Shown here in pieces: positions 10,509 through 31,526 of a stretch of DNA of 33,475 nucleotides (positions are counted from its first letter, which is position 1; each line of letters begins with the position of its first letter). The position numbers were made by a program, and so were the translations under genes. Below the pieces are notes generated by a model. It saw only the letters and a list, made by a program, of their open reading frames with translations. It made no database searches and was not told where the DNA came from. Location of the stretch: assembly GCA_903845055.1 (NCBI GenBank), contig CAIMWF010000004.1, positions 1-33,475 on the forward strand. The letters run 5' to 3'. The stretch comes from an uncultured Bacteroidales bacterium (lineage in GTDB: Bacteria; Bacteroidota; Bacteroidia; Bacteroidales; FEN-979).

Positions 10509-11252
10509 ATGGAATCCCGAACGTTAAGCATATTAATCCCGGCTTACAACGAAGCAGCCACCATTCACCACATCCTGGACAAGATCCTTGCGGTTGAACT
10601 TCCGTCAGGGGTGCAGAAAGAGATCATCATTGTGAACGATTTCAGCACCGACAAGACGATCGCGGTGGTGGAATCCTATATTTCCGGACATCCGGGCTGC
10701 GATATCCGGCTTTACAGCCAGCCGAAAAACCATGGCAAAGGCGCCGCGCTGCACCGGGGGATCAAAGAGGCCACGGGTGAGTTCATCATCATACAGGATG
10801 CCGATCTCGAGTACGACCCTGCCGATTACAATGTACTGCTGAAACCGGTCCTGGATGGCTTCGCCGATGTGGTTTACGGCTCACGCTTCATGGGAGGAAA
10901 ACCCCACAGGATTCTCTTTTTCTGGCACTCCATCGGGAACAAACTGCTCACGGTAATCTCCAACATGTTCACCAACCTCAACCTTACCGACATGGAGACC
11001 TGTTACAAGCTTTTCCGTGCCGAACACCTGAAACAGATCCGTTTCAGGGAGAACAGGTTCGGGTTCGAACCGGAGGTAACCTCCAAGATCGCCCGTTTCC
11101 CGAAAATCCGCATCTACGAAGTCGGGATCTCCTACTACGGACGTACCTACGAAGAGGGAAAGAAGATCGGGATGAAAGATGCCGTGCGGGCTGTATGGTG
11201 CCTCATTAAATATAACATATTCGACCGGAAGTACCTTAACACGGGCAACTGA
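10509..11252 (+). CDS. GT2 glycosyltransferase, DPM1-type (polyprenyl-phosphate sugar synthase-like)
   Basis: The protein is 247 aa with a GT-A fold and no membrane segments. The nucleotide-sugar block is [13 protein letters not shown], the DxD-like metal site is DADLEYD, and [27 protein letters not shown] and [18 protein letters not shown] are blocks typical of the short DPM1/ALG5-like GT2 group. Such enzymes move a sugar from a nucleotide donor to polyprenyl phosphate on the cytoplasmic face, giving the lipid-linked sugars that GT-C enzymes use outside. The neighbouring GT-C proteins fit that role, but the sugar and acceptor are not readable. ATG 10509 was chosen because the -7 element lies just before it. 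The next gene starts 46 bases downstream. Confidence 0.85.
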
Positions 11253-11298
11253 CCGGTTCACCGGCCACCGGGACGATGAGCAACGACATATCCTGAAC

Positions 11299-12783
11299 AT
11301 GGTCCAGATGCCTGCTCTTTTCATTACCCTTTACAGCCCCTTCTCCATGGTACTGGCGGCAGCAGCAGTCATACTGCTGTGGCGGCTGTTATCTGCCCTC
11401 TTCCGTTTTCCTGTTGCGCTCGTCACCACCTTGCTGATCCTGGCAGGGACCAACCTTACGGGACAGATTTTTACGGCCCCTCTTTCCGCGAATGTCATCC
11501 TTTTCCCGCTTTACCTGCTGGTAATCCTGCTGACGATTCAATTTCAAGAAGGCCGGAAATGGCTCCCATTGTTCCTGCTCTTTCCCGGGATGATCGCAAT
11601 TGCATTCCTGGGCGCCACGGGGATCTCCATGATTTTATTCCCGGTTTTCGCAATTTTCAGCAAATCTCACCCGCTGCGGCTGACGCCGAAAACACGGGGG
11701 CAGCTGATGTTCCTGGGTGCCATCGCCCTGGTCTGCTCACTCCTGAGGCAGTTCGCGGCCTTCACCGATCCTGTTGCGGTCCTCTTTCCCGGTTATCCGG
11801 ACGGGAGTCACTTCCTTGCCGGGCCGGTTAACATCCACCGGGTATTGTTTTCCATCCAGAATGGCTGGCTGGTATACACCCCCCTGGTGGTCCCGGCAAT
11901 TGCCGGGTACTGGTTCCTGGCGCGGGATAACCGCGAATATTTCGCCGCTGCATTTCTGGTCCTGGTCGTTTCACTGGCAGACGCCGGCGGAATCCCGACC
12001 TGGTTTTTCCCCGGCCGCTTCGGGTATCCATACCTCGTTGAGACCTATGCCCTGCTCAGTCTGCCGCTGGGTTCCCTGGTGCAAAGGTTGTGGAACGGCA
12101 GGGCGAAACTCCGCGTCATTCTCTTCACTGTGTCGATCCTGCTGATCACCCTGAATCTTTTCCAGGAGTGGCAGTTCAGCCGGGAAATCCTCCGGCCCGG
12201 GAGGATGACCCCGGCCTGGTATGCCGCCACTTTCGGTAAAACCCGCATCGACCCGCATGACCAGGGGTTGCTGAGACCATGTTTTCCCACGACACCCGAC
12301 TCCATCCCTGCCGATCCGCCGTTAACCTGCAAGAGCCTGGCACGGTTTGATTTTGAGCAGCCGATGGCCGAGTGCGGACCATCGCAGCTTGAGCGCGCGG
12401 CGCATTCGGGGAAATACGGCCTGCTGATGAACGAACAACGGAGGTTTTCACCCGGGCTGAAGATCTCCATGAAAGATCTGGCCTGCGGCGATTCCTGCTG
12501 GCTCAGGGCAGGAGGATATTTTTATTATTCATGTACCCCGGCGGCCAGCAAGGTCTTCCTGGTGATCACCTGCATTCACATGGGTAATCCCTACAAATAC
12601 CGGGTCGTCGACCTCTCCTCCGACCGGTTCCATCCAAAACAATGGAATCACGTTGAGATGAGTTATCTCGTCCCGTTTCCAGTCGACACGGATGACCAGT
12701 TGCAGGTCTATTTTATGAATTGGGGGGACCAGGAGTGTTTCATCGACGATTTCGACATCAACCTCTGTAAAACGGCACCATGA
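11299..12783 (+). CDS. Polytopic GT-C-like protein lacking its catalytic N-terminus, with C-terminal beta-sandwich domain
   Basis: The protein is 494 aa with about eight membrane segments in residues 10-320. It is a paralogue of the 592-aa proteins encoded at 12780 and 16871. Shared blocks are LAGTNLTGQI, NGWLVYTP (NGLFLYNP in the neighbour) and WFFPGRFGYPYLVE (WFFGGSFGSRPFVE in the neighbour). It starts about 130 residues later in the alignment, so the first membrane segment and the SDxxxYYxYLPATF loop, where GT-C enzymes carry the catalytic acid, are absent. Residues 350-494 are a soluble domain shared with four other proteins here. The frame is open upstream to 11179, but that part lies inside the GT2 gene and carries no family sequence, so I chose ATG 11299. 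The stop overlaps the next start (ATGA). Probably non-catalytic, possibly a partner subunit. Confidence 0.7.
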   Translation: MVQMPALFITLYSPFSMVLAAAAVILLWRLLSALFRFPVALVTTLLILAGTNLTGQIFTAPLSANVILFPLYLLVILLTIQFQEGRKWLPLFLLFPGMIAIAFLGATGISMILFPVFAIFSKSHPLRLTPKTRGQLMFLGAIALVCSLLRQFAAFTDPVAVLFPGYPDGSHFLAGPVNIHRVLFSIQNGWLVYTPLVVPAIAGYWFLARDNREYFAAAFLVLVVSLADAGGIPTWFFPGRFGYPYLVETYALLSLPLGSLVQRLWNGRAKLRVILFTVSILLITLNLFQEWQFSREILRPGRMTPAWYAATFGKTRIDPHDQGLLRPCFPTTPDSIPADPPLTCKSLARFDFEQPMAECGPSQLERAAHSGKYGLLMNEQRRFSPGLKISMKDLACGDSCWLRAGGYFYYSCTPAASKVFLVITCIHMGNPYKYRVVDLSSDRFHPKQWNHVEMSYLVPFPVDTDDQLQVYFMNWGDQECFIDDFDINLCKTAP

Positions 12784-14558
12784 AAAAGAAGTCAATGATA
12801 TCGCGTGGCGCCCTTGAGGAAATTCTCGTCTTTTCCACGCTTTTCGTGGTTTGTCTGTACCTTGCCGCGCAGCTCAATTTCATCGGCGGAAAGCCGCGCG
12901 GGGCCGGGGTGTTCGCTTCCGACAAAAGCATCTATTACGTATACCTGCCGGCAACCTTCATTTACGGGTGGGACGTAAATAAATTTCCCCGACACTGCGA
13001 TACCATCTACAAAGGTTTTATCCTCGACTATAAAACAGGTAAGATCGTCAATAAAATGACCTGTGGCGTGGCCCTGCTGTGGACCCCTTTTTTCCTCGTC
13101 ACCCATGCCATCGCCACCGTTTTCAACCTGCACCCCGATGGTTTTTCCGATTTTTACCAGGAGATGGCGCTCATTCCCCCGGTCTTCTTCCTGGTGCTGG
13201 GACTTTTTTTTACAAAGCGGTTCCTACGGTATTATTTCCCGCCCCCCGTTGTTTACACCTGCCTGCTGTTCCTGCTTGCGGGGACGAACCTGTTCTATTA
13301 CGGACTGGTGGAGGGTCTCATGTCGCATGTCCATTCATTTTTCCTGTTTGCACTTTATCTTTACCTCCTGAAGAAATTCCACGGCGATCCCGGCCGGTCG
13401 CTGAAACTGTTTGCCGCGATCAGCGCCACGGTCGCCCTTGCCATCCTGGTCAGGCCCACCAACCTGGTCATCCTCGCCTGGTTTTTCCTGCTCGATGCCG
13501 CGAACCTGCAGGAAATCGCCAAAAGGATACGCATCTTTTTCCGGACTGAATACCTGCTGACTTTCGCCCTCATCGTCTTCCTGGTTTTCCTGCCGCAGCT
13601 CATTTACTGGAAATATGTTTCGGGCAGCTTCCTGCACTATTCTTACGGTAAAGAGGGCTTCTTCTACTGGAAGAACCCGGTGATCCTGCCCCTGCTGTTT
13701 TCGCCGTTCAACGGGCTGTTCCTCTATAACCCGATGGTGCTGCTTTTCGTGGCAGGCGCTTCCTGGATGATTTTCCGCAGGAAGGCGAACGGGTTGGTGC
13801 TTCTGTTCACCTTTGCCCTGGTTGCCTGGATTTCGGGTTCGTGGCACATGTGGTTTTTCGGAGGCAGTTTCGGCTCAAGGCCCTTTGTGGAATACGATGC
13901 GATCCTGTCGCTCGGCTTTGGCTTTTTCCTTGCGGAAACCGCACGGCTGAAGAATCTGTTCACGCGGTCGCTGGTGTTGCTTTGCATGATCATTTTCAGT
14001 TATTACAACCTGAAACTGGTATACCACAACAGCTGGTACACCGGTTCGGTCTGGGACTGGGATGCCTATAAAAACCGCCTGGAGGATGCATCCATCCTGC
14101 ACTTTTCAAAAGACAGCTACACCTACATCAACGATTTTGAGAATATCTCCTTCGAGCCGGCGATCGTGATTTCAAACGTCTGGTATCATTCGCGCAATAT
14201 TTCGGGGCTGGTCGATTCAAGATATGAGTATTGCGGCGTATACCGGCGCGGCATGAACGCGATCCTCGACCACCCTGCCGGTCATATCACGGCTGGTCTG
14301 TGGGTCAGCCCCGTCGGTTCCGATTCAACCGATGTGGTGCTGGTAGCCTCCATCGAGGACGAGCAGCACCATCCCTGGTTCTACAGGATCATGCCGGTGA
14401 ACAGGTCGGGAACAAAGACGGGAACCTGGTCGGAAGTGCGGCTGTCGTTTGCAATCCCGCACTGGCTCAGCGAACCCGAATACACGCTGAAGATCTACCT
14501 CTGGAATGTTCACCACCATACCTTTTACCTGGATGATGTCCGCGTGAAAATTGAATAA
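12780..14558 (+). CDS. GT-C-type membrane glycosyltransferase with C-terminal beta-sandwich domain (paralogue 1)
   Basis: The protein is 592 aa. After a first membrane segment (about 15-35) comes an extracytoplasmic loop with SDKSIYYVYLPATF; Asp48 is the likely catalytic acid of a GT-C fold. Around ten further membrane segments run to about residue 425, with the motifs LVRPTN, FSPFNGLFLYNP and FFGGSFGSRPFVEYDA. The soluble C-terminal domain (451-592) opens with NDFEN and closes with YLDDVRVKIE. It resembles the protein encoded at 16871 from end to end (same length, same motif order). GT-C enzymes use polyprenyl-linked sugars, which the adjacent GT2 could supply. It is translationally coupled to the previous gene by a 4-base overlap and converges with the next gene at an 8-base gap. 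Donor and acceptor are unknown. Confidence 0.78.
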   Translation: MKKKSMISRGALEEILVFSTLFVVCLYLAAQLNFIGGKPRGAGVFASDKSIYYVYLPATFIYGWDVNKFPRHCDTIYKGFILDYKTGKIVNKMTCGVALLWTPFFLVTHAIATVFNLHPDGFSDFYQEMALIPPVFFLVLGLFFTKRFLRYYFPPPVVYTCLLFLLAGTNLFYYGLVEGLMSHVHSFFLFALYLYLLKKFHGDPGRSLKLFAAISATVALAILVRPTNLVILAWFFLLDAANLQEIAKRIRIFFRTEYLLTFALIVFLVFLPQLIYWKYVSGSFLHYSYGKEGFFYWKNPVILPLLFSPFNGLFLYNPMVLLFVAGASWMIFRRKANGLVLLFTFALVAWISGSWHMWFFGGSFGSRPFVEYDAILSLGFGFFLAETARLKNLFTRSLVLLCMIIFSYYNLKLVYHNSWYTGSVWDWDAYKNRLEDASILHFSKDSYTYINDFENISFEPAIVISNVWYHSRNISGLVDSRYEYCGVYRRGMNAILDHPAGHITAGLWVSPVGSDSTDVVLVASIEDEQHHPWFYRIMPVNRSGTKTGTWSEVRLSFAIPHWLSEPEYTLKIYLWNVHHHTFYLDDVRVKIE

Positions 14559-14566
14559 CCCGTTTT

Positions 14567-16048
14567 TTATTTCCTGATCACCTTTACCAGGACGGTTTTT
14601 CCATCGTCGAACAGGATTACCGGCAGCCCTCCCCGCAATGGGATAAGGGTGATATCCTCCCTGAAAACATAATAGTAGCCAGCTGCAATGGAGGGCCCGT
14701 CGCGCGTGACCGGTTTCAGCCAGGTCATGCCCCCCGTTTCGCGGTAGAAATTCAGCGTTGGTTCAAACGGCCATGAAATGGCCAGGGTGACGGGTCCGGG
14801 ATGTTCATGCAGACGGACCTCCTTCCCGAGGAGAGCCAGGACATGCCCCGACTCCTTGTCGTAGTTCCAGTCGAGGAAGGTGGTGGAGGAAAATACGGCA
14901 AAGGTGTGAACGACCGCTGCGATGGCGAGCAGCATTGCCAGGGTGAGCGGGATGAATTTGGCGTTCATTTCCCGGTAAAGTTTTGCAACCAGGAATCCCA
15001 GGCAAAGCATGAACATCGGGACGAAAAGCAACCCGTAACGCCTGATCAGCAGTTTGGTGCCAAGGAGGTAAAATTGTGAAACATTGATTAAAACGGTCAG
15101 CATCAGCAGCAGGAAAACCAGGAGCAGGATGCGGTCTTCGTGCAGTAGTGCCTTGCTTTTCTTCAGGAACATCACGGCCAGGATGACTGCTGCCGGAACC
15201 ATAACGGCAACCACCAGGATTTGGATAAGAATTTTGCCCCAATGGGCATAGCCTGCCCCGTAAAAAAAGGTTTCAGCCAGGCTCCCGACCGTATCGTGCC
15301 AGAAACCGGATTCGCCCCCGTAAAAAAACTGGTCGGCCACAACCAGTTTCCTCACCGGCCCTGCCAGGATGAGGCCAAGTACCACGAAAACGACCAGGTT
15401 GATCAGGTTGATCCTGGCGAGAACCCTGGTTTTCGTGGAATAAAGTTCGCCGTTCACCCGGCACTCAAGCAGGTGCCATAGGTTTACGGTCGCCACCAGC
15501 GCCAGCAGGTAATTAAGCATGGTGAAATGGCTGAACACCCCGAGGCAGGCAAAGAGGACCGACCAGAGATAATTCCCATATCCCGGGCGGCTTGTATACC
15601 GCACCAGGAAAAAAATGCTGGTCACCAGGAAACAGTAGGAGAGACCGTTTCCCCTCGCCAGCGCAAAGAAGTCGAGCAGGTAGGGATTGCACGTTGCCAG
15701 CGCGAAGACGGGCAACATCACCCAGGGCTCCAGTTTCCGCAACAGCAGCAGGGTAAAACCCAGGAAACCGGCCAGGGCCAGAAGGTTCGGCAATCGCAGG
15801 ATGATCACCGGGCTGCCGAAAACCCATGAAAGGAATTTCATCAGCAGCGTATTGAGCAGGTGGTTGTTGGGCGAAGCGACCTTGTAGCTGAAAATATCCG
15901 CAAGCGGCGCGGTTACAAAGCGATTGTAGGTAAAACTCTCATCATGCGTAAAAGTGGAGGTAACGGCCTTTTGAATGACCATGCCCAGCAAAAGCACCGC
16001 CAGCACATCAATCAGAACCCACGAAAAAACCTTTGCCTGCTTTTCCAT
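14567..16048 (-). CDS. GT39/GT83-like membrane glycosyltransferase (493 aa)
   Basis: This is a polytopic membrane protein with roughly 10-12 hydrophobic segments. After the first one (about residues 8-28) comes the catalytic-loop motif THDESFTYNRF with Asp36-Glu37, the position of the acidic pair in PMT/ArnT-like GT-C enzymes. It is followed by SPNNHLLNTLLMKF, frequent in Bacteroidota relatives. The C-terminal ~90 residues after the last segment are soluble and unlike the beta-sandwich domain of its neighbours. ATG 16048 is preferred over an in-frame TTG at 16057 because the sequence MEKQAKVFSW gives a normal short cytoplasmic start. The gene faces against its neighbours and has its own promoter-like element. 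Substrates are unknown. Confidence 0.8.
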   Translation of the reverse strand: MEKQAKVFSWVLIDVLAVLLLGMVIQKAVTSTFTHDESFTYNRFVTAPLADIFSYKVASPNNHLLNTLLMKFLSWVFGSPVIILRLPNLLALAGFLGFTLLLLRKLEPWVMLPVFALATCNPYLLDFFALARGNGLSYCFLVTSIFFLVRYTSRPGYGNYLWSVLFACLGVFSHFTMLNYLLALVATVNLWHLLECRVNGELYSTKTRVLARINLINLVVFVVLGLILAGPVRKLVVADQFFYGGESGFWHDTVGSLAETFFYGAGYAHWGKILIQILVVAVMVPAAVILAVMFLKKSKALLHEDRILLLVFLLLMLTVLINVSQFYLLGTKLLIRRYGLLFVPMFMLCLGFLVAKLYREMNAKFIPLTLAMLLAIAAVVHTFAVFSSTTFLDWNYDKESGHVLALLGKEVRLHEHPGPVTLAISWPFEPTLNFYRETGGMTWLKPVTRDGPSIAAGYYYVFREDITLIPLRGGLPVILFDDGKTVLVKVIRK

Positions 16049-16061
16049 CAAACACAAATTC

Positions 16062-16080
16062 TAAATCGTAAATCGTAAAT
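16062..16080. repeat. Short tandem repeat, 7-base unit TAAATCG
   Basis: Two full copies and a partial third copy of TAAATCG lie in the divergent gap 16049-16170. Such short AT-rich tandem repeats are frequent between Bacteroidota genes. No function is evident. Confidence 0.5.
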
Positions 16081-16170: not shown

Positions 16171-16803
16171 TTGAAAAATATCACAAGTCATCCCGGTTCA
16201 GAGATGTTTTTTTCCCTCCTTTCAGCAGCAGGTTTGCTTTCACTGTTTATCGTACTGAACAGCTATCTCCATGAAGGCTCCCTTGAAAAAAGCAGGAAGG
16301 CGGGTGAATTTCACGAAACAGAGCACCTCACCGACACGGCCGGGATGGTTACCAGCCGGGTGGCTTTCCACGATTTTGAAGCCGGCGACCCTGCCGATCC
16401 GGCCCTGCATCTTGCTGCCATCGGCCACACGGGAAAGCAGTCGCTGAAGATGAGTTCCGCCATGCCGTTTTCCCCGGGACTGTGGACCCGTTTCAGGGAC
16501 CTTCCTGCCGGCGGGCATGGCTGGATCCGCGCGACCGGGTACGTTTGGTTTTCCTGCTTGCCGGGGGATGTGAAATGCAGCCTGGTTGCCACCTGCAACC
16601 ACCAGGGAGCCAATTTCAAATACATGTTCATCGCCCTTGAAAAGGAAAACCTCGTGCCCAATCGCTGGAACAAAATAACCATCGACTACCGCATCCCTGA
16701 ACCTCCCCTGGGGGAGGATATCCTGCAGGTCTATTTCTGGTACCGCGGGAACGGGGAGATGCTGGCGGATGACATCGGGGTGGAGTTGCTGAGGGTTAAA
16801 TAA
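16171..16803 (+). CDS. Membrane-anchored stand-alone beta-sandwich domain protein
   Basis: The protein is 210 aa from a TTG start, or 199 aa from ATG 16204. One membrane segment near the N-terminus (FFSLLSAAGLLSLFIVLNS) is followed by a linker. Residues 67-210 are homologous to the C-terminal domains of four GT-C proteins in this window: HDFE at the start, FSPGLWTRF, GWIRATGYVWFSC, NRWNKITIDY, DILQVYFW and ADDIGVELL at the end. The pattern of short beta strands suggests a jelly-roll, possibly carbohydrate-binding, but no binding residues can be assigned. I slightly prefer the TTG because it gives a charged Lys-Asn start like the paralogues and follows the -7 element at normal distance. The ATG is also possible. 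Confidence 0.68.
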   Translation: MKNITSHPGSEMFFSLLSAAGLLSLFIVLNSYLHEGSLEKSRKAGEFHETEHLTDTAGMVTSRVAFHDFEAGDPADPALHLAAIGHTGKQSLKMSSAMPFSPGLWTRFRDLPAGGHGWIRATGYVWFSCLPGDVKCSLVATCNHQGANFKYMFIALEKENLVPNRWNKITIDYRIPEPPLGEDILQVYFWYRGNGEMLADDIGVELLRVK

Positions 16804-16870: not shown

Positions 16871-18649
16871 TTGAAGAAGAAATTTTCCGCCGGCAACTGG
16901 TTCTTTTATCTGCTGTTCTGCACCTCGCTGGTGCTTACCTGGTTTTTCCACAAGGATGCCGGCCGCTTTAACGACCGGGGCGAACTCTGGTCCGACCGGG
17001 CGGGTTACTATATATACCTGCCGGCCACCTTCTTTTACCATTTCGACACGCGCCGGATGCCCGCCGACCTCGACATCGTCACCGGTGGCGGGTTCAGCAT
17101 CGATACCGTTAAAAACAAACTCGACACGAAGTACACCTGCGGTGTTGCCCTGATGGTCGCCCCCTTTTTTTTCACGGCGGGACTGGTCTCGCGCCTCTGC
17201 GGTTTTGACGATGAAAACGGCTTTTCCATGCTATACATGCGCTTCATGGGGCTGGCCGCGGTTGTCTACCTGCTGCTCGGGTTATGGTTCCTGAAAAAAT
17301 TCCTCTGCTTTTATTATGATCCGCTGACCTGCTATGCGGTTATCACCCTGATTTTTCTTGGCACCAACCTCTTTTTTTATGCGCTCATCGACGGGATGAT
17401 GTCGCATGTCTTTTCTTTTTTCCTCTTTTCGCTGTTCCTGTATGCCCTCAAAAGATACCTGCTGCTGCCGGCCCGTTCCTGGTTCATGCTGCTGTCCTTC
17501 CTCCTTGCACTTTCCATCCTCATCCGGCCGACGAACATCATCCTTGGGTTCCTCTTTTTCACCTGGGATGCAACCGGTACTGCCGAATGGACCCGCCGGC
17601 TGAAGCAACTCCTGAAACCATCGCATCTCTTTTTTTTCCTGGCCGTCCTCTTTGTCCTGTTCCTGCCGCAGCTTGTTTACTGGAAGTACCTTTCGGGACA
17701 CTGGCTTCATTTTTCATACCAGGGCGAAGGATTCACCAACTGGCGCCACCCGAAGTTTGCGGCCGTTCTCTTCTCACCCGTCAACGGACTGTTCCCATAC
17801 ACCCCGGTGGCATTGCTCTTCGTGGCGGGCATGTTCATGATGCTCTACAGGAAGGCGCGCAACGGCCTGTCGGCGGCAACCATGTTCGTGCTGGTTACCA
17901 TTACCTGCGCCACCTGGAAAATGTGGTATTTCGGGTGCAGCTTCGGGCAAAGATCATACATTGAATACTATGCGATCATGGCCGTACCGTTCGGCTATTT
18001 TATCAACCATGTTTTTACAAGGCGGAATTTCATTGCCACGACCGCTCTCTTTTTTGTTTTATTCCTGTTCATTTATGTAAACCTCAGGTTTACCGTTGCC
18101 GGCTACAGGTATGAGCGTTGTTATTACGGCTCCACCTGGGACTGGGACCACTTTTACCATACCCTGGGGAAGACGGGAATCCTGGCTGCCGACTGCCGGA
18201 CCACCACCTTTGAAAACGATTTTGAGAACATGGCCATCCTGCCGGTGGTGAGGCCTTCGCAGGTGTTCACCCGTTCGGGGCAATACAGCGTCGCAGCCGA
18301 TAAAAAGGTGGAAGAGACCCCCTTGTTTTCAACCCGGCTCGATGAACTGGGTTATCCCTACCCGAAAAGGATCGGGGTGGAGGTATGGATGCTGAAACCA
18401 GGGAGCAGGCCTACCGGCGCATCGCTGGGCTACAGCCTGAACAACGGGGCAAAAGTCCTTTTCAGCGAGGAACAACCGGTCGACAGCCTGGTGCGGGCCC
18501 CGCTGACCTGGGCGAGGGTATACAAAACCTTCATCGTGCCCGATGTCAACGATTCGTCGCTGCAGATCAGGATTTTTATAAAAAATCCGAAACATGCCCT
18601 GCTGTTCGCCGACGACCTGTTGGTGCGGTACCGGTATAGCTGGAATTGA
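16871..18649 (+). CDS. GT-C-type membrane glycosyltransferase with C-terminal beta-sandwich domain (paralogue 2)
   Basis: This 592-aa protein is a full-length paralogue of the one at 12780. The extracytoplasmic loop after the first membrane segment has SDRAGYYIYLPATFFYHFD, with Asp42 as the likely catalytic acid. Later shared blocks are TCGVALMVAPFF, FLGTNLFFYALIDGMMSHVFSF, LIRPTN, FSPVNGLFPYTP and FGCSFGQRSYIEYYA. The C-terminal domain (449-592) starts NDFEN and ends near FADDLLVRY but is more diverged in its middle. The start is TTG at 16871, followed by AAGAAGAAA as in the ATG-started paralogue; no in-frame ATG lies nearby. A six-codon frame beginning with ATG at 16854 ends at TGA 16872-16874, overlapping this TTG. 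That could be coupling, chance, or a one-base sequencing error near the start. Confidence 0.76.
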   Translation: MKKKFSAGNWFFYLLFCTSLVLTWFFHKDAGRFNDRGELWSDRAGYYIYLPATFFYHFDTRRMPADLDIVTGGGFSIDTVKNKLDTKYTCGVALMVAPFFFTAGLVSRLCGFDDENGFSMLYMRFMGLAAVVYLLLGLWFLKKFLCFYYDPLTCYAVITLIFLGTNLFFYALIDGMMSHVFSFFLFSLFLYALKRYLLLPARSWFMLLSFLLALSILIRPTNIILGFLFFTWDATGTAEWTRRLKQLLKPSHLFFFLAVLFVLFLPQLVYWKYLSGHWLHFSYQGEGFTNWRHPKFAAVLFSPVNGLFPYTPVALLFVAGMFMMLYRKARNGLSAATMFVLVTITCATWKMWYFGCSFGQRSYIEYYAIMAVPFGYFINHVFTRRNFIATTALFFVLFLFIYVNLRFTVAGYRYERCYYGSTWDWDHFYHTLGKTGILAADCRTTTFENDFENMAILPVVRPSQVFTRSGQYSVAADKKVEETPLFSTRLDELGYPYPKRIGVEVWMLKPGSRPTGASLGYSLNNGAKVLFSEEQPVDSLVRAPLTWARVYKTFIVPDVNDSSLQIRIFIKNPKHALLFADDLLVRYRYSWN

Positions 18650-20364: not shown

Positions 20365-20413
20365 CCTTTTGATTGGGTTCCCGGTAATAATTTCAGCCAT
20401 AACAGATTGTCAG

Positions 20414-24479: not shown

Positions 24480-26390
24480 ATGAACAGCGATTTTGTCACA
24501 AAAAACAAGGAATATTTTTACCTGGCGTTTTTTATTGTCGCCCTGATCACCTTTTACCCCCTCTTTTTTACCGGCTTTGCCACGGCCGACGATTTTCACT
24601 TTTACCTGATGACGCGAAGGGGCCTGGTCAAGGAGGACGCCTTTCATTTTGCCACCGTTGCCGGGCGGTTTTACTTTTACATCGTGAAACCGCTGTACAA
24701 CCTCCCGTATGTCTTCGACAACATGGTGGTTGTAAAGATTTTCCACCTTGTCCCGTTGATCTTCTGCTTCCTGCTCTTCGCAAGGATCATCAGGATGATG
24801 ACCGGGTCGAGGGAACTCTCATGGCTTTTCCTCCTTGTGTTCCTGATGACCATGCAGATCTCGCAGCACACCAGCCTTTTCCTGGCGTACCCGTTCTTTT
24901 TCACCTTCTCCTTTTCGCTGCTGCTCATCTCCTTTATCCTGCTGCTGCGCTATTACGAAAATAAAAAAAGGAGCATGCTCGTCCTGGCGGCGCTCTTTTT
25001 CCTCGTCGGGCTGCTGTTTTATGAAACCTACATCTTTTTCCTGCTTTTTGCCGGGCTGACCATCGCTTATCACAACCTGCGGGAAAAAAGACCGTGGCAG
25101 CAGGCGGCAAGGGATTCGTTCCTGCAACTCCTTCCTTTCCTGGTCATCGGCATCCTCTACATCGCCACCTATTTTATCTTCAGGATTTATCACCCGTCGC
25201 AGTATGCTGGGACCAGCTTCGGGATGAAGGAGGTGACGCTGAAGACCTTTTTTGCGGTGTTGTGGCACCTCTCCTTTTCCGCTTTCCCGCTTACCATTTA
25301 CTCGACAGAGCACACGCTGTTCTGGGACAAGTCGGAACTGGTCAGCGGGTACTCCCCGGTATTGCTGCGGCTGATCCTGAGCGCCCATGTGGAGTGGATC
25401 GTAAAGGGAGTGGTGGTGGCCTTCTGCGGGTATAAACTGCTTCTTGCCTCTCCCAGGCTGAAAACAGCAGGCCTCCTGGGTGCGATCCTGATCGCCCTGA
25501 TGATGATCTTCCTGCCGCACCTTCCACTGGCCCTGACTGAGAAATATACTTTTCATGCCGGCAAGCACGGCATGCTCGGGTACGTGACCACCTTTTATTC
25601 CTTCTTCGGGGTGTTGCTCCTTATCACGGTGCTGTTGAGTTACCTGATGAATCTCTTCAACTTCAACCTCATTGCCAAACGGATCATCACCTCGCTGTTC
25701 GTTTTGGGATTTTTCATCTGTTCCGTCCTTACCGACTTTTCGAATTATACCGTTGCAAAGGATATCCGCAGCGCCAACCTGCGGTTCTACGCCATCGACG
25801 AACTCCTGAAAACAGATGAATTCAGGGCCATCCCCGCCGGGACACCGTTTTATGCGAAGGAACTGTGGGACAATCCCTCCTCCTGCGCGCGCGGTGTCAC
25901 GGAGCAGGATTTTAACTGGTATGAATATTTCGAAGCCAAAAACAAGGTAACTTACCCAGTGGGACGTGATTCAGGTTATTTCCTGACCTATTCGAAAACT
26001 GTTCCCCAGGTGCCCTGGTACCTGACCCTGCGCCAGGCGGAGAAGTCGGAGGATGTGACACTGGTCATGGCCAAAATGTTGCCGCTGCAGCCGCGCGATT
26101 CGGTCGTTGACCACTTTGCCGACCGCGCCACCGTGATTTACTATTCGTCCTATAAGATCTTCACGGTGAGTTTCAGGGTCAGGGCCAGCCAGCCCGGCGA
26201 TACGATCCCGATCCGGGTGAACCAGATTAATGATAAGGAGGTCCCGATGCGGACGGTTGAAATGAACGTTTACGATACCAAAAAAGGACATCCGGCCACC
26301 ATTTTCACCATCCAGTTCCCGGGCATCGACCTCAATTCCATCATGATCTCCAACATGACCAACAAAACCAATAAATACTTTTACCTGTAA
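24480..26390 (+). CDS. Polytopic membrane protein, probable GT-C glycosyltransferase (636 aa)
   Basis: I do not recognise a named family. After the first membrane segment (about 12-31) comes TGFATADDFHFYLMTRRG, with the Asp37-Asp38 pair in the place where GT-C enzymes keep their catalytic acid. About ten more hydrophobic segments extend to about residue 420. The remaining ~210 residues are soluble and probably periplasmic. They are rich in beta-type segments near the end (IFTVSFRVRASQPGDTIPIRVNQ) but lack the xDFE and DDxxV motifs of the shared domain in the other GT-C proteins. It follows SGNH protein B by 16 bases and likely belongs to the same operon. Function is inferred from topology and context only. 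Confidence 0.65.
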   Translation: MNSDFVTKNKEYFYLAFFIVALITFYPLFFTGFATADDFHFYLMTRRGLVKEDAFHFATVAGRFYFYIVKPLYNLPYVFDNMVVVKIFHLVPLIFCFLLFARIIRMMTGSRELSWLFLLVFLMTMQISQHTSLFLAYPFFFTFSFSLLLISFILLLRYYENKKRSMLVLAALFFLVGLLFYETYIFFLLFAGLTIAYHNLREKRPWQQAARDSFLQLLPFLVIGILYIATYFIFRIYHPSQYAGTSFGMKEVTLKTFFAVLWHLSFSAFPLTIYSTEHTLFWDKSELVSGYSPVLLRLILSAHVEWIVKGVVVAFCGYKLLLASPRLKTAGLLGAILIALMMIFLPHLPLALTEKYTFHAGKHGMLGYVTTFYSFFGVLLLITVLLSYLMNLFNFNLIAKRIITSLFVLGFFICSVLTDFSNYTVAKDIRSANLRFYAIDELLKTDEFRAIPAGTPFYAKELWDNPSSCARGVTEQDFNWYEYFEAKNKVTYPVGRDSGYFLTYSKTVPQVPWYLTLRQAEKSEDVTLVMAKMLPLQPRDSVVDHFADRATVIYYSSYKIFTVSFRVRASQPGDTIPIRVNQINDKEVPMRTVEMNVYDTKKGHPATIFTIQFPGIDLNSIMISNMTNKTNKYFYL

Positions 26391-26404
26391 CCTGTTACCC
26401 GTTA
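26381..26404. repeat. Short imperfect repeat around TTACCTGT/CCTGTTACC
   Basis: A 24-base stretch made of near-copies of an 8-10-base unit (TTACCTGTAA, CCTGTTACCC, GTTA) begins in the last codons of the upstream gene and covers its stop. It resembles the short repeats often found between Bacteroidota genes. No function is evident. Confidence 0.35.
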
Positions 26405-26419
26405 AACAAAATCAGCACC

Positions 26420-27196
26420 ATGACGAACGATCTTAAGCCCGGCTCCGTGGGCAACAACATCACTAGCCTGTTCCCGAAAACAAAACCAGATCTCCCCCCC
26501 GAATTCAGGGCGGTTTATGAAACGTATTATAAAAAAAACAGGCAGGGGGAGACCGCCGCCACTTCGTTGTCGAGCAGGATGGAACACTGGCTTCATCTAA
26601 AGGTTGCCAAAGACGTAAAGCATTCGCAGGGAGGCGACCCCGTCACGCTGGAGATCGGGGCCGGGACGCTGAACCAGCTGCCGCTGGAGCCTCATGTCGG
26701 GCAATACGACATCGTGGAGCCCTTCGGGGAACTGTACCGCGGATCGCCCCACCTTCACCGCATCCGCAAGATCTACAATGATATCAGCGATGTGCCGGTA
26801 ACGAACCGTTACGACCGGATTACCGCGGTGGCGGCCTTCGAACACATCCTGAACCTGCCCGAAGTGGTCGCGAAAGGGGTCCTCCTGATGAGTGCAAAAG
26901 GTTCGATGAGGGTTTCGATACCAAACGAGGGTACAATTTTATGGAAACTGGGAACGTTAATAACCGGGTTTGAATTCAAACGGATGTACGGACTCGATTA
27001 CCAGGTGCTGATGCATTATGAACACGTAAATACAGCCGATGAAATAGAGGCGGTGATGAAGTATTTTTTCCGCGATGTTTCGACCAGCGTTTTCGGGATT
27101 AGCAAAAAACTGGCTTTTTACCGTTTTATGGCCTGTACCGGTCCTGATTCCGGGAAGGCGCGTGACTATCTCGCGGGTTTGAAGGACCGGAAATGA
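26420..27196 (+). CDS. SAM-dependent methyltransferase (class I)
   Basis: The protein is 258 aa, soluble, with a Rossmann-type methyltransferase core. Motif I is VTLEIGAGTLNQLP (residues 75-88), a second acidic position occurs in YDIVEPFGELY, and motif IV-like RITAVAAFEHILN lies before VAKGVLLMSAKGSMRVSIP, as in the methyltransferase-11 group. The first ~50 residues (SLFPKTKPDLPPEFRAVYE and onward) are an extension typical of sugar or lipid-linked methyltransferases in glycan clusters. It sits between the membrane protein at 24480 and a GT2 gene, so methylation of a glycan or lipid carrier is plausible, but the substrate is not known. Confidence 0.8.
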   Translation: MTNDLKPGSVGNNITSLFPKTKPDLPPEFRAVYETYYKKNRQGETAATSLSSRMEHWLHLKVAKDVKHSQGGDPVTLEIGAGTLNQLPLEPHVGQYDIVEPFGELYRGSPHLHRIRKIYNDISDVPVTNRYDRITAVAAFEHILNLPEVVAKGVLLMSAKGSMRVSIPNEGTILWKLGTLITGFEFKRMYGLDYQVLMHYEHVNTADEIEAVMKYFFRDVSTSVFGISKKLAFYRFMACTGPDSGKARDYLAGLKDRK

Positions 27197-27246
27197 AATG
27201 AACCCCTTAAACGCTTATCTTTAGCCCTGAAAACAAATTAACCATC

Positions 27247-28008
27247 ATGCCGGATCAGATTTACCTCAGTGTCGTTGTCCCGTCTTACAGGTCGTCAGAG
27301 ATCCTGGAAAGAAACCTGCCCTTTTTGCTTGCCTACCTGCAGAAGCAGGACTATAGTTCCGAAGTGCTGGTGGTCGACGACGGGAGCAACGACCATGGGG
27401 CTACGGAGGAGGTTTGCCGTAAACTGGGCTGCCTGTTCTTCAGCAACCCTGCAAACATGGGAAAAGGTGCGGCCGTCCGCACCGGGATGATGGCAGCACG
27501 GGGACTCTTCAGGATTTTCACCGACGCCGACATTCCCTACGAACTCGATGCCATCGGTACCATGCTCCGCTATCTTGATTTCAAGGAATTCCAGCTGGTC
27601 ATCGGCGACCGTAACCTCAGGGGATCCACCTACCTTACCGAGATCCCCGAACTGAGGAAATTCACCAGCATCTTCTTCACACGGTTTGTGGGCACCATTG
27701 TCACCGCCAATTTTTTCGACACCCAGTGCGGGCTCAAAGGATTCAGGGGGGATGTCGCGGATTTTATCTTCCGACACGCCCGGATCAACGGTTTTGCATT
27801 CGATGTCGAATTGCTCTACATCGCACTGAAGCAGAATTTCGAAATCAAAAGAATCCCGGTGCGGCTGAACAACAACAGTGAAAAGTCGACTGTAAGGGTT
27901 TTCCGGCATGGCATCACCATGTTCTTCGACCTCTTCAAAATCAAAATCAACAACGTAAAGGGCTATTACCGGGGACAAAAGGAAGATTCCCGGGAGCTTC
28001 CTTCCTAA
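27247..28008 (+). CDS. GT2 glycosyltransferase, ALG5/DPM1-type
   Basis: The protein is 253 aa with no membrane segment. Blocks: LSVVVPSYRSSEIL, then EVLVVDDGSND, ANMGKGAAVRTGM, the DxD site FTDADIPYE, IGDRNL, and FDTQCGLKGFRGDVADFIF, which is diagnostic of the dolichyl/polyprenyl-phosphate glucosyl- or mannosyltransferase-like GT2 group. It probably makes a second lipid-linked sugar donor for the GT-C proteins. A near-consensus TATCTTTA (one mismatch to TAnnTTTG) lies at 27216-27223. The stop overlaps the stop of the minus-strand gene by 4 bases. Confidence 0.87.
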   Translation: MPDQIYLSVVVPSYRSSEILERNLPFLLAYLQKQDYSSEVLVVDDGSNDHGATEEVCRKLGCLFFSNPANMGKGAAVRTGMMAARGLFRIFTDADIPYELDAIGTMLRYLDFKEFQLVIGDRNLRGSTYLTEIPELRKFTSIFFTRFVGTIVTANFFDTQCGLKGFRGDVADFIFRHARINGFAFDVELLYIALKQNFEIKRIPVRLNNNSEKSTVRVFRHGITMFFDLFKIKINNVKGYYRGQKEDSRELPS

Positions 28009-29963
28009 GGCATCTTCACCAGGTCAACCTTCAGGTTGTCCATGTAAAACACCTGTTTTCCCGGGTTCCAGATATAAAACTTCATGCAGTCGTCCGGTGA
28101 TTTGAACCCGGGCAGGCGGGCCGTGAGGGAGATCCTGTTCCATTGACCCGGCTTGAGTTTCTGCTGGTTGATGTTCATGGAGGTGTAGCTGTATGACTGG
28201 TTCTTATGCTCGAATGAAATCACCATCAGCGTGTTTGCCTCACGATCGACTGCCGTGAGGTACACGTAAGCCACGGCCCTGATGCCGTTCATCCCGGTGT
28301 TTTTCGGAAGTGTCGAAACCAGCAGCCAGGCTCCCGGGCTGAACTCCGTCTTTTCATCCATTTTGAACGAATGAAGGCCTGAAAAGGCAAAATCGCGCGA
28401 TAACATGCTCGTATCCGATCCCGGTGCCGGTTCAAAAGTGTTGAACAGGATGTTCTTAACGGCGGAGTTGTTCTCATCCGCTTCGATCAGCGAATCGCGG
28501 ATTGCGTAATTGTCGGCATGCTGCCCGGGCTGCAGCACCTTCATCACATAGCATTCGTAGGGATAACCGCCGAAGGTGATCCAGTTTTCGGTTGGTCTGA
28601 AATACCTGATGAGCCTGAAATGGGTGCGCCTCAGCATCGAATCGGGGGGGATCTGCGATTCATTCGATCCGAAATGGGCGTCCCAGATAAGGATCGAATT
28701 GGGCGGGATGGTGTCGAGGTAACGGCAGTCCTTCAGCAGGTAGCAGTCGGGGTTCTTTGTCTCAAAATAGTCAAGCCCCAGCTGCATGGAGGTGCTGATA
28801 TCGGTAAAATAGGGCTTCCGGCCCGCATAGGGCGATTTTTTGTACCAGTCCGAAACACGCTGGATGGTCGCCTCTTCCGGTCCGGGGGTATAGGGAATCG
28901 GGAAGGAAAGGAGGGTGGTGACTACCACCACCGCCAGCACCAGGGCCAGGAAGATCCGCTGGGCAATAACAGAAAAACGAAAGATTTGCTCCAGCCCTTC
29001 GTAACCCTTCAGGCACACCAGTGCCGCCAGGGGAAGCATGGCGGCCATCACGCGGCCCAGGCCCATGGAACCGCCGAGTGCTTTCCAGTATAGCACCGAG
29101 TGAAAGGCGAGGTAGAGCAGGAAGGGCGCCAGCGCCAGGAGGCCGAGCAGAACCGCCCGGCGGCGGACCAGGGGATCGCGTGCAAAGCATTCGATGCCGG
29201 TTACGGCTATCCCGGCCAGAAACAGCAGTTCGAGCGGCAGGCCGATGATGGAGTTACGCGATTGGATGAAATGCCATAAACTGCCCTTCTCGGTATAGAT
29301 GGGATGATGCCCTGAAACCGGGTAGGGGAATTTTGTAAAAACCCAGAAAAGATCATGGTGGTAAAAGGAGCCGATGATGCTGAAAATTACAAGACCGGAT
29401 ACGAGGAAGGGGATGGCCCGGTATTGTTTGTAAACAAATAAGACGAACATGAAAAGCGGGAGCATGATAAACCCTTCCGACCGGGCAAATGGCAGGAATG
29501 ACATGACAATGGCCGCCATGAGGTAATTTTTCCGCAGGAAAAAGAAGAGGGAGAGCACGAATATGAAACTGAAGATGATCTCGGTGAGCGCGGTAGGCAG
29601 CATGATGAAATAGAGCGGGGTGAAAAGGACCAGGATGATGGCTGCCAGCGGGTGCCTGAAGCCGAGCATCCCGGCGATGCGGAAACAGAAATAGGCCGTG
29701 GCGATCCCCGTAAGGATGTTGTACAGTTTCAAACCCTGCATCCCGAACTGTGCAAACGGGGAGCTGAAGATCGTGTACATCGGGCGCGCCCAGGTGTTTA
29801 GGAAATGTTCCGGGTGCCTGAAAGCGAAGTGGGAGAAAAGGTAATGCGCCACGTTGTCCGTCCCGCCGTAATAACCAGTGGACACAAAGGAGTAAATGAT
29901 GAAAAGCAGCAACAGGAACCCGAGGAGGATCCAGTGAAGGTTTTGTTTCAGGCGGTCGGACAT
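28005..29963 (-). CDS. GT-C-like membrane protein with C-terminal beta-sandwich domain (652 aa)
   Basis: A first membrane segment (about 10-28) is followed by TGYYGGTDNVAHYLFSHFAF; Asp36-Asn37 sits where GT-C enzymes carry acidic residues. The loop continues HPEHFLNTWARPMYTIF, a pattern seen in mannosyltransferase-like GT-C families. About ten further segments run to about residue 340, then a soluble linker with LIWDAHFGSNES. Residues 508-652 are the shared domain: NTFEP, TEFSPGAWLLV, IRAVAYVYLT, PGQWNRISLTARLP, MKFYIWN and YMDNLKVDLV. It is convergent with the GT2 gene (4-base overlap) and divergent from the SGNH gene at 30063, with its own promoter-like element. Function is inferred from fold and neighbourhood. 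Confidence 0.74.
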   Translation of the reverse strand: MSDRLKQNLHWILLGFLLLLFIIYSFVSTGYYGGTDNVAHYLFSHFAFRHPEHFLNTWARPMYTIFSSPFAQFGMQGLKLYNILTGIATAYFCFRIAGMLGFRHPLAAIILVLFTPLYFIMLPTALTEIIFSFIFVLSLFFFLRKNYLMAAIVMSFLPFARSEGFIMLPLFMFVLFVYKQYRAIPFLVSGLVIFSIIGSFYHHDLFWVFTKFPYPVSGHHPIYTEKGSLWHFIQSRNSIIGLPLELLFLAGIAVTGIECFARDPLVRRRAVLLGLLALAPFLLYLAFHSVLYWKALGGSMGLGRVMAAMLPLAALVCLKGYEGLEQIFRFSVIAQRIFLALVLAVVVVTTLLSFPIPYTPGPEEATIQRVSDWYKKSPYAGRKPYFTDISTSMQLGLDYFETKNPDCYLLKDCRYLDTIPPNSILIWDAHFGSNESQIPPDSMLRRTHFRLIRYFRPTENWITFGGYPYECYVMKVLQPGQHADNYAIRDSLIEADENNSAVKNILFNTFEPAPGSDTSMLSRDFAFSGLHSFKMDEKTEFSPGAWLLVSTLPKNTGMNGIRAVAYVYLTAVDREANTLMVISFEHKNQSYSYTSMNINQQKLKPGQWNRISLTARLPGFKSPDDCMKFYIWNPGKQVFYMDNLKVDLVKMP

Positions 29964-29985
29964 GGGATTTTGAAGTTGATCGGGG

Positions 29986-29993
29986 CAAATGTA
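29986..29993 (-). promoter_or_regulatory. Predicted -7 element (TACATTTG) for the minus-strand GT-C gene
   Basis: On the minus strand this reads TACATTTG, matching TAnnTTTG, 22 bases before the ATG at 29963. Confidence 0.5.
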
Positions 29994-30025
29994 TAAAAAA
30001 CCGGCGCCAAGCCTTTAAAAATCCT

Positions 30026-30033
30026 TAGTTTTG
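30026..30033 (+). promoter_or_regulatory. Predicted -7 element (TAGTTTTG) for SGNH protein C gene
   Basis: This is a perfect TAnnTTTG match, 29 bases before the ATG at 30063, in the 99-base divergent gap 29964-30062. Confidence 0.5.
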
Positions 30034-30062
30034 TATGGTATTTCGTCATTTCCTGCCTGTTT

Positions 30063-31526
30063 ATGCGTTTTATCAAGGTATTGCTCCTTTCTTTGGTCCT
30101 GCTGGTTTTTGCGACCCCTTCATTCCAGTATGGGCTGAAAATTTTTAATGAAACCCCGCTGAAGGGCTTCTACCACAAGTACCCGCCTCCTTCGCTTGAT
30201 TCCCTCACCCCCTCAGGCTGGTTCTCCTCCCGCTTCCAGGATGCGTTCACGCAGCATCTCAACGACCACACGGGGCTGCGCAACACCCTGATCCGCATCA
30301 GCAACCAGGCCGACTACTCCCTTTTCGGGATCATCCACGCCGAAGGCTTCATCCGCGGCAAACAGGGTTACCTTTACGAGGAGGATTACATTCATGAATA
30401 TACCGGCGAATATTTCATCGGGCAGGCTGCCATCGACAAAAAGCTGCTGCGGCTGAAGGATGTCATCGACAGTCTCAGGGCCCGTCATGTGACGCTGCTG
30501 CTGGTTTACGAGCCGGGCAAGGCCAGTTTTTACCCGGAACATATCCCCCTCCGGTTTCACCCGGAGAAAAGGAGCCTGACCAACTATGAATACATGACCA
30601 GGCGGTCGGCCGAACTGGGGATAGGGTTTCTCGACATGAACCGGTACTTCCTGCTGATGAAGGATACAGCCAGGTTTCCGCTGTTTCCGAAGTACGGGAT
30701 GCACTGGAGCCTGTTCGGGGTTCCTTATGCCGTGGATACGGTCGCCCGCGCCATTGAGCATGAAACGGGCGTGGCGCTGCCGCGTTTTTCATCAGGCCGC
30801 TATATCCGGTCAGGGATCCCGATGGGTTCCGACAACGACATCGGCGAACTACTCAACGTGGTATGCCCCCTGCACCCCACCCAGGGGGGCTTCCCGCAGG
30901 TAACCTTCGCAAAATCGCCGCCGGCGCCTTTGAAGGTGCTGGCCATCGCCGACAGCTATTACCTCAACATCATCACGGCATACGGCCGGAAAATGTTCGC
31001 CAGCCAGGACTACTGGTACTACAACAAGAAGGTCTTTCCCTACCAGAACAACAACCCGCCTCTTTACGTCGATAAATCAAACCTTCGCGAAAAACTTGAA
31101 AATTACAACCTGGTGCTGCTGATGATCTCGGAGATAAACCTTCACTGCGGCTTCTGGAATTTCGCCGATGAAGCTTACGCCGCCTTTCACCCCGGGTTGA
31201 GGGAACCGCTGGTCTGGGGCATCGAGAACGACATCAGGAACGACCGCGAATGGTTCAGGTTCATGGTAAGGAAGGCCCGGATCCAACACCGGCCGCTGGA
31301 GGAGATGATCCGCGAGGATGCCTGGTACACCTTTTATACCAATTACAACGAGCTGAAGGGAAAAAGCTACTGGGACAGCGTGTATCACATCACCTTCGAC
31401 ATAAAAAACAACGCGGAATGGTATGCGCAGGTTGTTAAAAAGGCCGCTGACCGGAAGATCCCGGTCGACTCCATGCTGCTGCTTGATGCTGTTTATTGTT
31501 ACGGTCAATCGAAAAATAAGCATTAA
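30063..31526 (+). CDS. AlgX/AlgJ-like SGNH-fold protein C with duplicated C-terminal motif
   Basis: The protein is 487 aa, about 55 residues longer than proteins A and B. It has an N-terminal membrane anchor (4-20), then RFQDAFTQHLNDHTGLRNTL, YGMHWSLFG with His214, and LAIADSYYLNII with Ser298. As in A and B, Gly212 stands in place of the expected Asp two residues before the His. The extra length comes from a second copy of the C-terminal motif: residues 387-426 (VRKARIQHRPLEEMIREDAW) and 442-481 (VKKAADRKIPVDSMLLLDAV). It has no adjacent MBOAT gene and its own promoter-like element, so it may use the MBOAT encoded at 21715 or have diverged in role. Confidence 0.75.
   Translation: MRFIKVLLLSLVLLVFATPSFQYGLKIFNETPLKGFYHKYPPPSLDSLTPSGWFSSRFQDAFTQHLNDHTGLRNTLIRISNQADYSLFGIIHAEGFIRGKQGYLYEEDYIHEYTGEYFIGQAAIDKKLLRLKDVIDSLRARHVTLLLVYEPGKASFYPEHIPLRFHPEKRSLTNYEYMTRRSAELGIGFLDMNRYFLLMKDTARFPLFPKYGMHWSLFGVPYAVDTVARAIEHETGVALPRFSSGRYIRSGIPMGSDNDIGELLNVVCPLHPTQGGFPQVTFAKSPPAPLKVLAIADSYYLNIITAYGRKMFASQDYWYYNKKVFPYQNNNPPLYVDKSNLREKLENYNLVLLMISEINLHCGFWNFADEAYAAFHPGLREPLVWGIENDIRNDREWFRFMVRKARIQHRPLEEMIREDAWYTFYTNYNELKGKSYWDSVYHITFDIKNNAEWYAQVVKKAADRKIPVDSMLLLDAVYCYGQSKNKH
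31221..31505 (+). repeat. Tandem duplication encoding two copies of a ~40-residue C-terminal motif
   Basis: Copy 1 (31221-31340) and copy 2 (31386-31505) encode related segments with the pattern DI[RK]N-x2-EW ... [RK]KA ... P[LV][ED]xM ... DA. The DNA itself is diverged, so this is an old duplication visible only at protein level. Single copies are encoded at 21560-21679 and 24323-24442. Confidence 0.7.

What the first reader, a model, noticed from the sequence alone, without database searches (positions are those of the whole stretch)
10509..31526. Candidate undescribed surface glycosylation/O-acylation locus with seven GT-C-type proteins and three AlgX/J-like proteins
Seen: two GT2 enzymes of polyprenyl-phosphate type, seven polytopic proteins (six with acidic loop motifs), one methyltransferase, one MBOAT acyltransferase and three SGNH partners, in 21 kb. 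Known: GT2 enzymes of this group feed GT-C enzymes, and MBOAT-SGNH pairs acylate glycans outside the membrane. Inferred: the genes build and decorate one or more surface glycans or glycoproteins. No flippase, polymerase of Wzy type, or alginate genes are visible, so a lipid-linked single-sugar donor route seems more likely than a classical O-antigen pathway.
Basis: partly seen in the sequence, partly recalled or inferred. Interest (0 to 1): 0.72.

Follow-up and report, generated by a model that had tools for sequence, protein, structure and literature searches.

The report
Sugar-decorating island with dead-enzyme partners
An uncultured Bacteroidales-like bacterium carries a 21-kb gene island that most likely adds sugars and acyl groups to a surface polysaccharide outside the inner membrane, and two of its sugar-adding enzymes are each encoded right behind a relative that lacks the catalytic part but keeps a sugar-binding-type domain.

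The parts
10509..11252 (+). A: GT2, polyprenyl-phosphate-hexose-synthase-like, no TM helix seen; left end of the island
   Evidence: PF00535 3.8e-32; nearest solved chain dolichol-P-mannose synthase, 7.3e-15; match at E 4e-104 or better in 30 of 43 family genomes, own included
11299..12783 (+). B: GT-C pseudoenzyme (membrane part without the catalytic loop) + CBM-like C-terminus; the ORF opens at 11179, but relatives of 474-493 aa fit the ATG at 11299
   Evidence: D48 column empty in 9 of 9 orthologs; directly before C in 8 of 8
12780..14558 (+). C: GT-C transferase + CBM16/22-like C-terminus; start overlaps the B stop by 4 bases
14567..16057 (-). D: probable GT-C transferase with THDES loop motif
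   Evidence: profile links to the C family (96%) and to the PMT_2 protein G (76%), both with caveats
16171..16803 (+). E: one TM anchor + CBM-like domain, no transferase domain
   Evidence: 31.6% identical to the B C-terminus, 5e-27; next recognised gene is F in 13 of 13
16871..18649 (+). F: GT-C transferase + CBM-like C-terminus
   Evidence: 35% identical to C over 579 aa, 1e-108; in 9 of 14 complete loci plus a 46-bit fragment in a tenth
18714..20279 (+). G: GT-C transferase of PMT_2 type with WDEQYH loop motif
   Evidence: PF13231 1.7e-19
20369..21712 (+). H: AlgX/J-like SGNH protein, one TM anchor, G-x-H-W instead of D-x-H-W
   Evidence: PF16822 2e-11; alignments
21715..23172 (+). I: MBOAT acyltransferase ending in FIYFRF (FXYXXF acyl-shuttle motif)
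   Evidence: PF03062 1.9e-19; DltB chains 4e-32; C-termini
23177..24463 (+). J: AlgX/J-like SGNH protein, 42% identical to H
   Evidence: PF16822 4.1e-9
24480..26390 (+). K: probable GT-C protein with TADDF loop motif and C-terminal beta domain
26420..27196 (+). L: methyltransferase, weakly assigned
   Evidence: PF13489 E 0.004, under cut-off
27247..28008 (+). M: second GT2; best NCBIfam match polyprenyl-P-GalNAc synthase PpgS, far under cut-off
   Evidence: PF00535 2e-17; NF058614 59.8 bits against cut-off 370
28005..29963 (-). N: probable GT-C transferase + CBM-like C-terminus
   Evidence: profile match to the C family 99.6%, mainly over the C-terminal domain; invariant D36, H40
30063..31526 (+). 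O: AlgX/J-like SGNH protein; right end of the island
   Evidence: PF16822 8.6e-12; in 12 of 14 complete loci, last gene before the right flank
31538..33475 (+). right flank: large secreted protein, cut by the contig end; the L083 homolog carries a T9SS sorting domain
   Evidence: PF18962 3.9e-5 on the L083 homolog, 24.3 bits, just under the cut-off of 27
7962..10460 (+). left flank: MurF-alanine racemase fusion, the syntenic anchor
   Evidence: PRK11930 1142 bits; anchor

Best explanation
The island encodes periplasmic decoration of a surface polysaccharide. (1) A and M, soluble GT2s at the cytoplasmic face, load sugars onto polyprenyl phosphate (inferred from homology). (2) An unlinked flippase, perhaps the genome's single GtrA, turns the lipid (inferred). 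(3) The GT-C transferases C, F, G and probably D, K and N move single sugars from the lipid to an acceptor polymer in the periplasm (fold and loop acid shown for C; the rest by similarity). (4) CBM-like domains on C, F, N, B and E hold the acceptor (fold shown on C; binding inferred). B, a GT-C that has lost its catalytic loop, and E, the same domain on a membrane anchor, act as non-catalytic acceptor-holding partners of C and F (conserved pairing shown; complex inferred). (5) The MBOAT takes an acyl group across the membrane onto the Tyr of its C-terminal FXYXXF motif and passes it to the SGNH proteins H, J and O, which acylate the glycan (motif shown, route inferred from PatA/PatB). Swapping of GT-C genes between fixed ends would change the surface structure between species.
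Against: No flippase gene is recognised on the contig, whose right end is cut. The acceptor is not identified; a secreted (T9SS-type) protein gene beside the island keeps protein glycosylation open. All 19 SGNH sequences aligned have Gly where AlgJ/AlgX have the triad Asp, so acyl transfer may be altered or absent. CBM rows are tied in Z with receptor-binding domains of clostridial binary toxins and a phage tailspike: the fold alone does not show sugar binding. The structure of K is uncertain. The CBM of the published GT136 enzyme was not needed for activity (PMC11127046). The link of E to the B lineage is weak (83/75) and that bootstrap had not settled.
Confidence: 0.58

Rival explanations
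1. The GT-Cs glycosylate secreted or outer-membrane proteins (PMT-like O-glycosylation) and the MBOAT-SGNH proteins acylate the protein-linked glycan.
For: G matches PMT_2; STT3 and Pmt1-Pmt2 chains are among the structural neighbours of C; the island ends at a large secreted-protein gene whose homolog carries a T9SS sorting domain just under cut-off, and 150 matches to that domain were scored in the genome, the limit of that search, 10 of them under cut-off.
Against: ALG12 and ArnT fit C better; in the two precedents read the CBM-bearing GT-Cs act on polysaccharide; up to six GT-Cs are many for one protein modification.
Confidence: 0.2
2. The GT-Cs build a main chain step by step in the periplasm from polyprenyl-phosphate sugars, as Emb/Aft enzymes build arabinan, rather than decorating a polymer made elsewhere.
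For: Up to six GT-Cs for only two donor synthases; EmbB and EmbA-EmbB chains align over both domains of C; K resembles AftA best, weakly, with AftD among its top three.
Against: The Emb alignments have rmsd of 14 A or more over the whole chain, so domain placement differs; GT-C content varies in each locus, which fits side-chain decoration better than a main chain; Wzy-type genes exist elsewhere in the genome.
Confidence: 0.13
3. B and E are decaying relics without function that happen to stay beside C and F.
For: B has only 50% identity to its nearest ortholog where C has 71% and F 67%.
Against: B is an open frame in 9 of 9 genomes and keeps its place before C in 8 of 8; E is found before F in 13 of 13. 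That random decay would give stops and loss at these distances is inference; no dN/dS was computed.
Confidence: 0.1

Closest known systems
Three-component pentofuranose-adding systems with a GT136 GT-C (Citrobacter youngae O1/O2; PMC11127046: abstract, the GT136 and CBM sections, first part of the Discussion read)
   Same: Polyprenyl-phosphate sugar donor, GT-C transferase with an Asp near TM1, C-terminal CBM that binds the unmodified polymer, sugar-modifying genes that differ between strains
   Different: Here GT2-type donor synthases, no linked flippase seen, up to six GT-Cs instead of one, catalytically null CBM-bearing partners, and an attached MBOAT-SGNH module; sequence kinship to GT136 was not tested
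Mycobacterial EmbA/B/C and AftD arabinosyltransferases (PMC3044687: outline and abstract read; AftD from PMC11127046)
   Same: GT-C fold plus CBM; several GT-Cs feeding on one lipid-phosphate sugar
   Different: Different envelope; whole-chain overlay poor (rmsd 14 A or more); no Emb protein lacking the catalytic loop is named in what I read
MBOAT-SGNH acyltransferases: AlgI-AlgJ-AlgX, PatA-PatB, DltB-DltD (PMC4148444 and PMC12148441: passages read)
   Same: MBOAT with WHG motif and FXYXXF C-terminus, PF16822 SGNH partners with one membrane anchor
   Different: The triad Asp is Gly in 19 of 19 partners aligned; three SGNH proteins beside one MBOAT; no alginate or Dlt genes seen; DltB equivalog cut-off not met
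ArnT / ALG12 and related polyprenyl-P-sugar GT-C transferases
   Different: Neither is known to me to carry a CBM or a pseudoenzyme partner (recalled, not searched)
LA_3751/LA_3752 putative glycosyltransferase family (NCBIfam NF047440)
   Same: Only curated family with a significant match to F (4.3e-5)
   Different: 22.5 bits against a cut-off of 200, so not a member

Membership tests
GT-C glycosyltransferase superfamily (C, F) | GT-C transmembrane fold | tested here: met
GT-C glycosyltransferase superfamily (D, N) | GT-C transmembrane fold | tested here: inconclusive
   profile matches 96.3% and 99.6%, but the N match lies mainly in the C-terminal domain, and the D match may be helped by one row (L052) that carries such a domain; no model was made
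GT-C glycosyltransferase superfamily (K) | GT-C transmembrane fold | tested here: inconclusive
GT-C glycosyltransferase superfamily | catalytic acid near the end of TM1 | tested here: met
   C/F D48 invariant in 31 rows; N D36; D D39/E40; G D67/E68; K D37/D38; that these residues are catalytic is inferred
GT-C glycosyltransferase superfamily (B as an active member) | catalytic acid near the end of TM1 | tested here: not met
   D48 column empty in 9 of 9 B orthologs; several other invariant residues lost too
Three-component polyprenyl-P-sugar systems (Gtr, GT136) | polyprenyl-phosphate sugar synthase in the locus | tested here: inconclusive
   A and M are homologs of such enzymes; lipid product not testable
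Three-component polyprenyl-P-sugar systems (Gtr, GT136) | linked flippase (GtrA, SMR or MATE) | tested here: not met
   none among the window proteins scanned; the right flank is cut by the contig end; one GtrA on another contig, with no glycan gene that I recognise in 1.5 kb either side
Three-component polyprenyl-P-sugar systems (Gtr, GT136) | GT-C with acceptor-binding CBM | tested here: inconclusive
   CBM16/22-like fold shown; binding not testable here
MBOAT-SGNH acyltransferases | MBOAT with catalytic His and C-terminal FXYXXF shuttle | tested here: met
   WHG and F.Y..F in 13 of 13 complete copies called in the family regions, 1 truncated copy left out; F.Y..F also in L012 (the G013 copy) and in L027, L032, L052 outside the family
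MBOAT-SGNH acyltransferases | SGNH partner with Ser-His-Asp triad | tested here: not met
   Ser and His kept, Asp position is Gly in 19 of 19
DltB equivalog (TIGR04091) | curated score cut-off | tested here: not met
   181.7 of 375 bits
Alginate acetylation system | alginate synthase genes beside algIJX | tested here: not met
   no such family among the window proteins scanned
Wzx/Wzy O-antigen cluster | flippase and polymerase in the cluster | tested here: not met
   none among the window proteins scanned; four Wzy_C proteins elsewhere in the genome

The most novel reading that the evidence does not exclude
Bacterial GT-C glycosyltransferases can work as obligate pairs with a pseudoenzyme: an ancestral CBM-bearing GT-C lost its catalytic loop, then TM1, then everything but an anchor and the CBM (B' to B to E), and the remnant now serves as a dedicated acceptor-holding or length-setting subunit of a neighbouring active GT-C, with gene swapping of such pairs diversifying a surface glycan.
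Probability: 0.4. Interest if true: 0.68.

Novelty: new variant of a known kind. Interest (0 to 1): 0.52.

Why it matters
Envelope glycan decoration in Bacteroidota is, to my knowledge, less mapped than that of enterics and mycobacteria (recalled). This island gives an easily recognised syntenic marker (MurF-Alr, GT2, GT-C with CBM-like domain, MBOAT, SGNH) for finding such systems in genomes. If B and E are real subunits, it makes directly testable whether a GT-C can be tuned by a catalytically dead paralog, and what the CBM on GT-C enzymes is for, a point the authors of the GT136 work call unclear (PMC11127046, Discussion).

Tried and rejected
Unrelated transporter fold for the polytopic proteins: rejected for C by structure; not excluded for K, and not tested by a model for D and N.

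B as a frameshift or assembly error: rejected. Only 46 bases separate the stop of the complete GT2 from the B ATG at 11299, so no catalytic loop is hidden there, and eight other genomes show the same loss.

Classical O-antigen cluster or alginate locus: no Wzx, Wzy or alginate gene among the window proteins scanned.

Search of solved structures by sequence with the C/F profile found nothing up to E 1. PHROGs found nothing for E, K, B and the flank protein. A plasmid search with C gave one distant record.

K against N by profile matched only at the C-terminus of one row (L079) that turned out to be another GT-C-like family, so it is not used as a link; that row was left out of the K alignment that was folded. 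The C/F profile against G gave only 33.5%, so G rests on Pfam.

Literature: six searches listed no description, by title or start of abstract, of this island or of a GT-C pseudoenzyme partner; two of them returned no paper, and one search showed 20 of 44. The library holds open-licence papers only. This is not proof of absence.

My first gene caller dropped overlapping genes: it missed E in G013, G014 and G017, A_GT2 and the MBOAT in G013, B in G032 and the 594-aa flank protein in G014. Locus counts in this report use the tblastn matrix or the direct reading of G032; the trees and one search use the gene-caller set, so G032 B is not in the tree.

Regions not taken: of 29 other family genomes with an A_GT2 match at E 4e-104 or better, 23 were fetched; G018, G024, G029, G035, G036 and G037 were not.
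Full report
Observation. The window is one whole contig (33475 bases) of a 3.95-Mb, 175-contig genome, 95% complete. The best matches of C in named genomes are in uncultured Bacteroidales and other Bacteroidota bins.

The CBM-like domain recurs. BLASTP inside the window links the C-termini of B, C and N with each other and with most of E, and a profile finds it in 74 proteins of the 24 family regions, matches under 90 residues dropped. One set of these is a protein of about 594 aa to the right of the island, with one TM, this domain and further sequence.

B is a conserved pseudoenzyme. The B frame opens at 11179, inside the GT2 gene, but relatives of 474-493 aa fit the ATG at 11299. In nine genomes (window, G017, G023, G027, G028, G030, G032, G034, L010) the D48 column is empty in 9 of 9, and several other invariant residues are gone. 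By my reading of the N-termini, G027, G028, G030 and G032 keep a TM1-like segment and lack only the loop; the window, G017, G023, G034 and L010 lack both. Full-length paralogs B' keep D48 in 7 of 7. In the tree of 43 rows all eight B rows (G032 not included) fall with B' (99/98); one origin is possible, not shown (67/96; 64% of bootstrap trees). B lies directly before C in 8 of 8 genomes with sequence beyond it (G030 ends there), with a 4-base overlap in the window, G023, G034 and L010, and all eight C-clade genes have B before them.

E is a second such partner. E is followed by F as the next recognised gene in 13 of 13 regions; a fourteenth ends at the contig edge. In G013 a 135-aa open frame lies between them. 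The F-type genes without E found here (G028, G030, G042, L010, and the G028/G032 second type) lie outside the 13-row F clade that has it. In a tree of the domains alone E falls with B and B', with modest support (83/75) and a bootstrap that had not settled.

A variable island at a fixed site. Of 43 family genomes, 30 (own included) have an A_GT2 match at E 4e-104 or better. I took regions of 23 of the other 29. Fourteen loci, the window included, show both ends; all 14 differ in content by best-match labels. MBOAT is in 13, O in 12, H or J type in 12 (in G009 only a 51-bit fragment), E in 9, F in 10 (in G026 only a 46-bit fragment), K in 8, N in 7. One genome brings an NAD-dependent epimerase and a DegT aminotransferase into the island (G009). 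In G006 the island is absent beside A_GT2, which there lies next to right-flank genes. L008, L009, L011, L012, L014 and L016 lie on contigs of the same length as those of G017, G023, G020, G013, G021 and G019 and were taken as the same, not counted twice.

Beyond the family. In 198 genomes of the order, own included, F-type GT-Cs occur in 74 and H-type SGNH in 60. Leaving out the own family, 70 SGNH matches at E 1e-30 or better were kept; 48 lie in genomes with a listed F match, and 12 of these, in 10 genomes (two genomes give two), are within 10 kb of one, against 0.71 expected under random placement (Poisson 2e-11); 32 genomes have both, Fisher p 6.7e-6. The F list was cut by the tool, and the null ignores contig breaks. 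K by contrast was found in 3 of 198, own included. Of 43 more distant loci found with C (L019-L061, flanks at most 10 kb, many cut), three also hold the MBOAT (L027, L032, L052). The acylation module is thus often near these GT-Cs but not bound to them.

Acylation module. The MBOAT ends in FIYFRF, matching the FXYXXF shuttle described for DltX and, as FIYSSF, at the PatA C-terminus (PMC12148441, passages), in 13 of 13 complete copies called in the family regions, with WHG in all 13. DltB is its only solved relative found by sequence; the DltB equivalog cut-off is not met (181.7 of 375 bits). AlgJ and AlgX use D-x-H plus Ser (PMC4148444, passages). The profile alignment puts Gly on that Asp, in 19 of 19 sequences. 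Ser-His dyads are known in CE2 SGNH enzymes, and AlgJ triad mutants kept about a fifth of their esterase activity (PMC9487903 and PMC4148444, passages), so loss of the Asp does not prove inactivity.

How it most likely works. Donor lipids made by A and M, an unlinked flippase, periplasmic transfer by the GT-Cs with CBM-like domains holding the acceptor, and acylation by MBOAT-SGNH. Shown: fold of C, motifs, pairing, synteny. Inferred: sugars, acceptor, complex formation, acyl transfer. The genome's one GtrA has no glycan gene that I recognise within 1.5 kb. Wzy-type proteins elsewhere could make the acceptor polymer.

Novelty. CBM-bearing GT-Cs fed by polyprenyl-phosphate sugars are known (PMC11127046; PMC3044687). 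What I did not find in the searches named under Tried and rejected is a conserved pseudo-GT-C or CBM-only partner paired with an active GT-C, nor this island. Hence a new variant of a known kind. On rechecking, the GT-C call of D and N was lowered from shown to probable and the confidence of the best explanation from 0.60 to 0.58.

Noticed in passing
L034:9869-11638 and L039:4321-6090; also the N-terminal additions of the G homologs in L034 and L039: Relatives of C and G carry a different added domain that reads like a fascin/ricin-type beta-trefoil instead of the CBM-like domain (my reading of the sequence, no search run).
   Followed up: no
L083:17422-19200 (G034) and orthologs right of the island: A protein of about 594 aa with one TM, the same CBM-like domain and further repeat-like sequence is part of the conserved right flank; Pfam finds nothing in it.
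   Followed up: partly
window 31538-33475: Start of a large secreted protein cut by the contig end; the homolog in L083 has a T9SS sorting domain just under the Pfam cut-off. In the own genome 150 matches to that domain were scored, the limit of the search.
   Followed up: partly
plasmid CP026659.1:115938-117038 and L023: C-type GT-C relatives occur on a plasmid record of a cockroach-gut Deltaproteobacterium (32% identity over 61% of C) and in a Desulfobacterales genome bin, which hints at transfer between phyla.
   Followed up: no
L079:10346-12226 and orthologs in G013, G014 (u11): Another polytopic protein family with the CBM-like C-terminus, not found in the window, follows the MBOAT in three relatives where the window has J and K.
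   Followed up: partly
L096 (G006): In this more distant relative A_GT2 stands between a sulfatase-type gene and a saccharopine dehydrogenase gene with no island: a possible empty or collapsed site.
   Followed up: no
window 2953-10460: KdtA-like Kdo transferase, MqnC, leucyl aminopeptidase, PdxA and a MurF-Alr fusion form a left flank that recurs in several relatives.
   Followed up: partly
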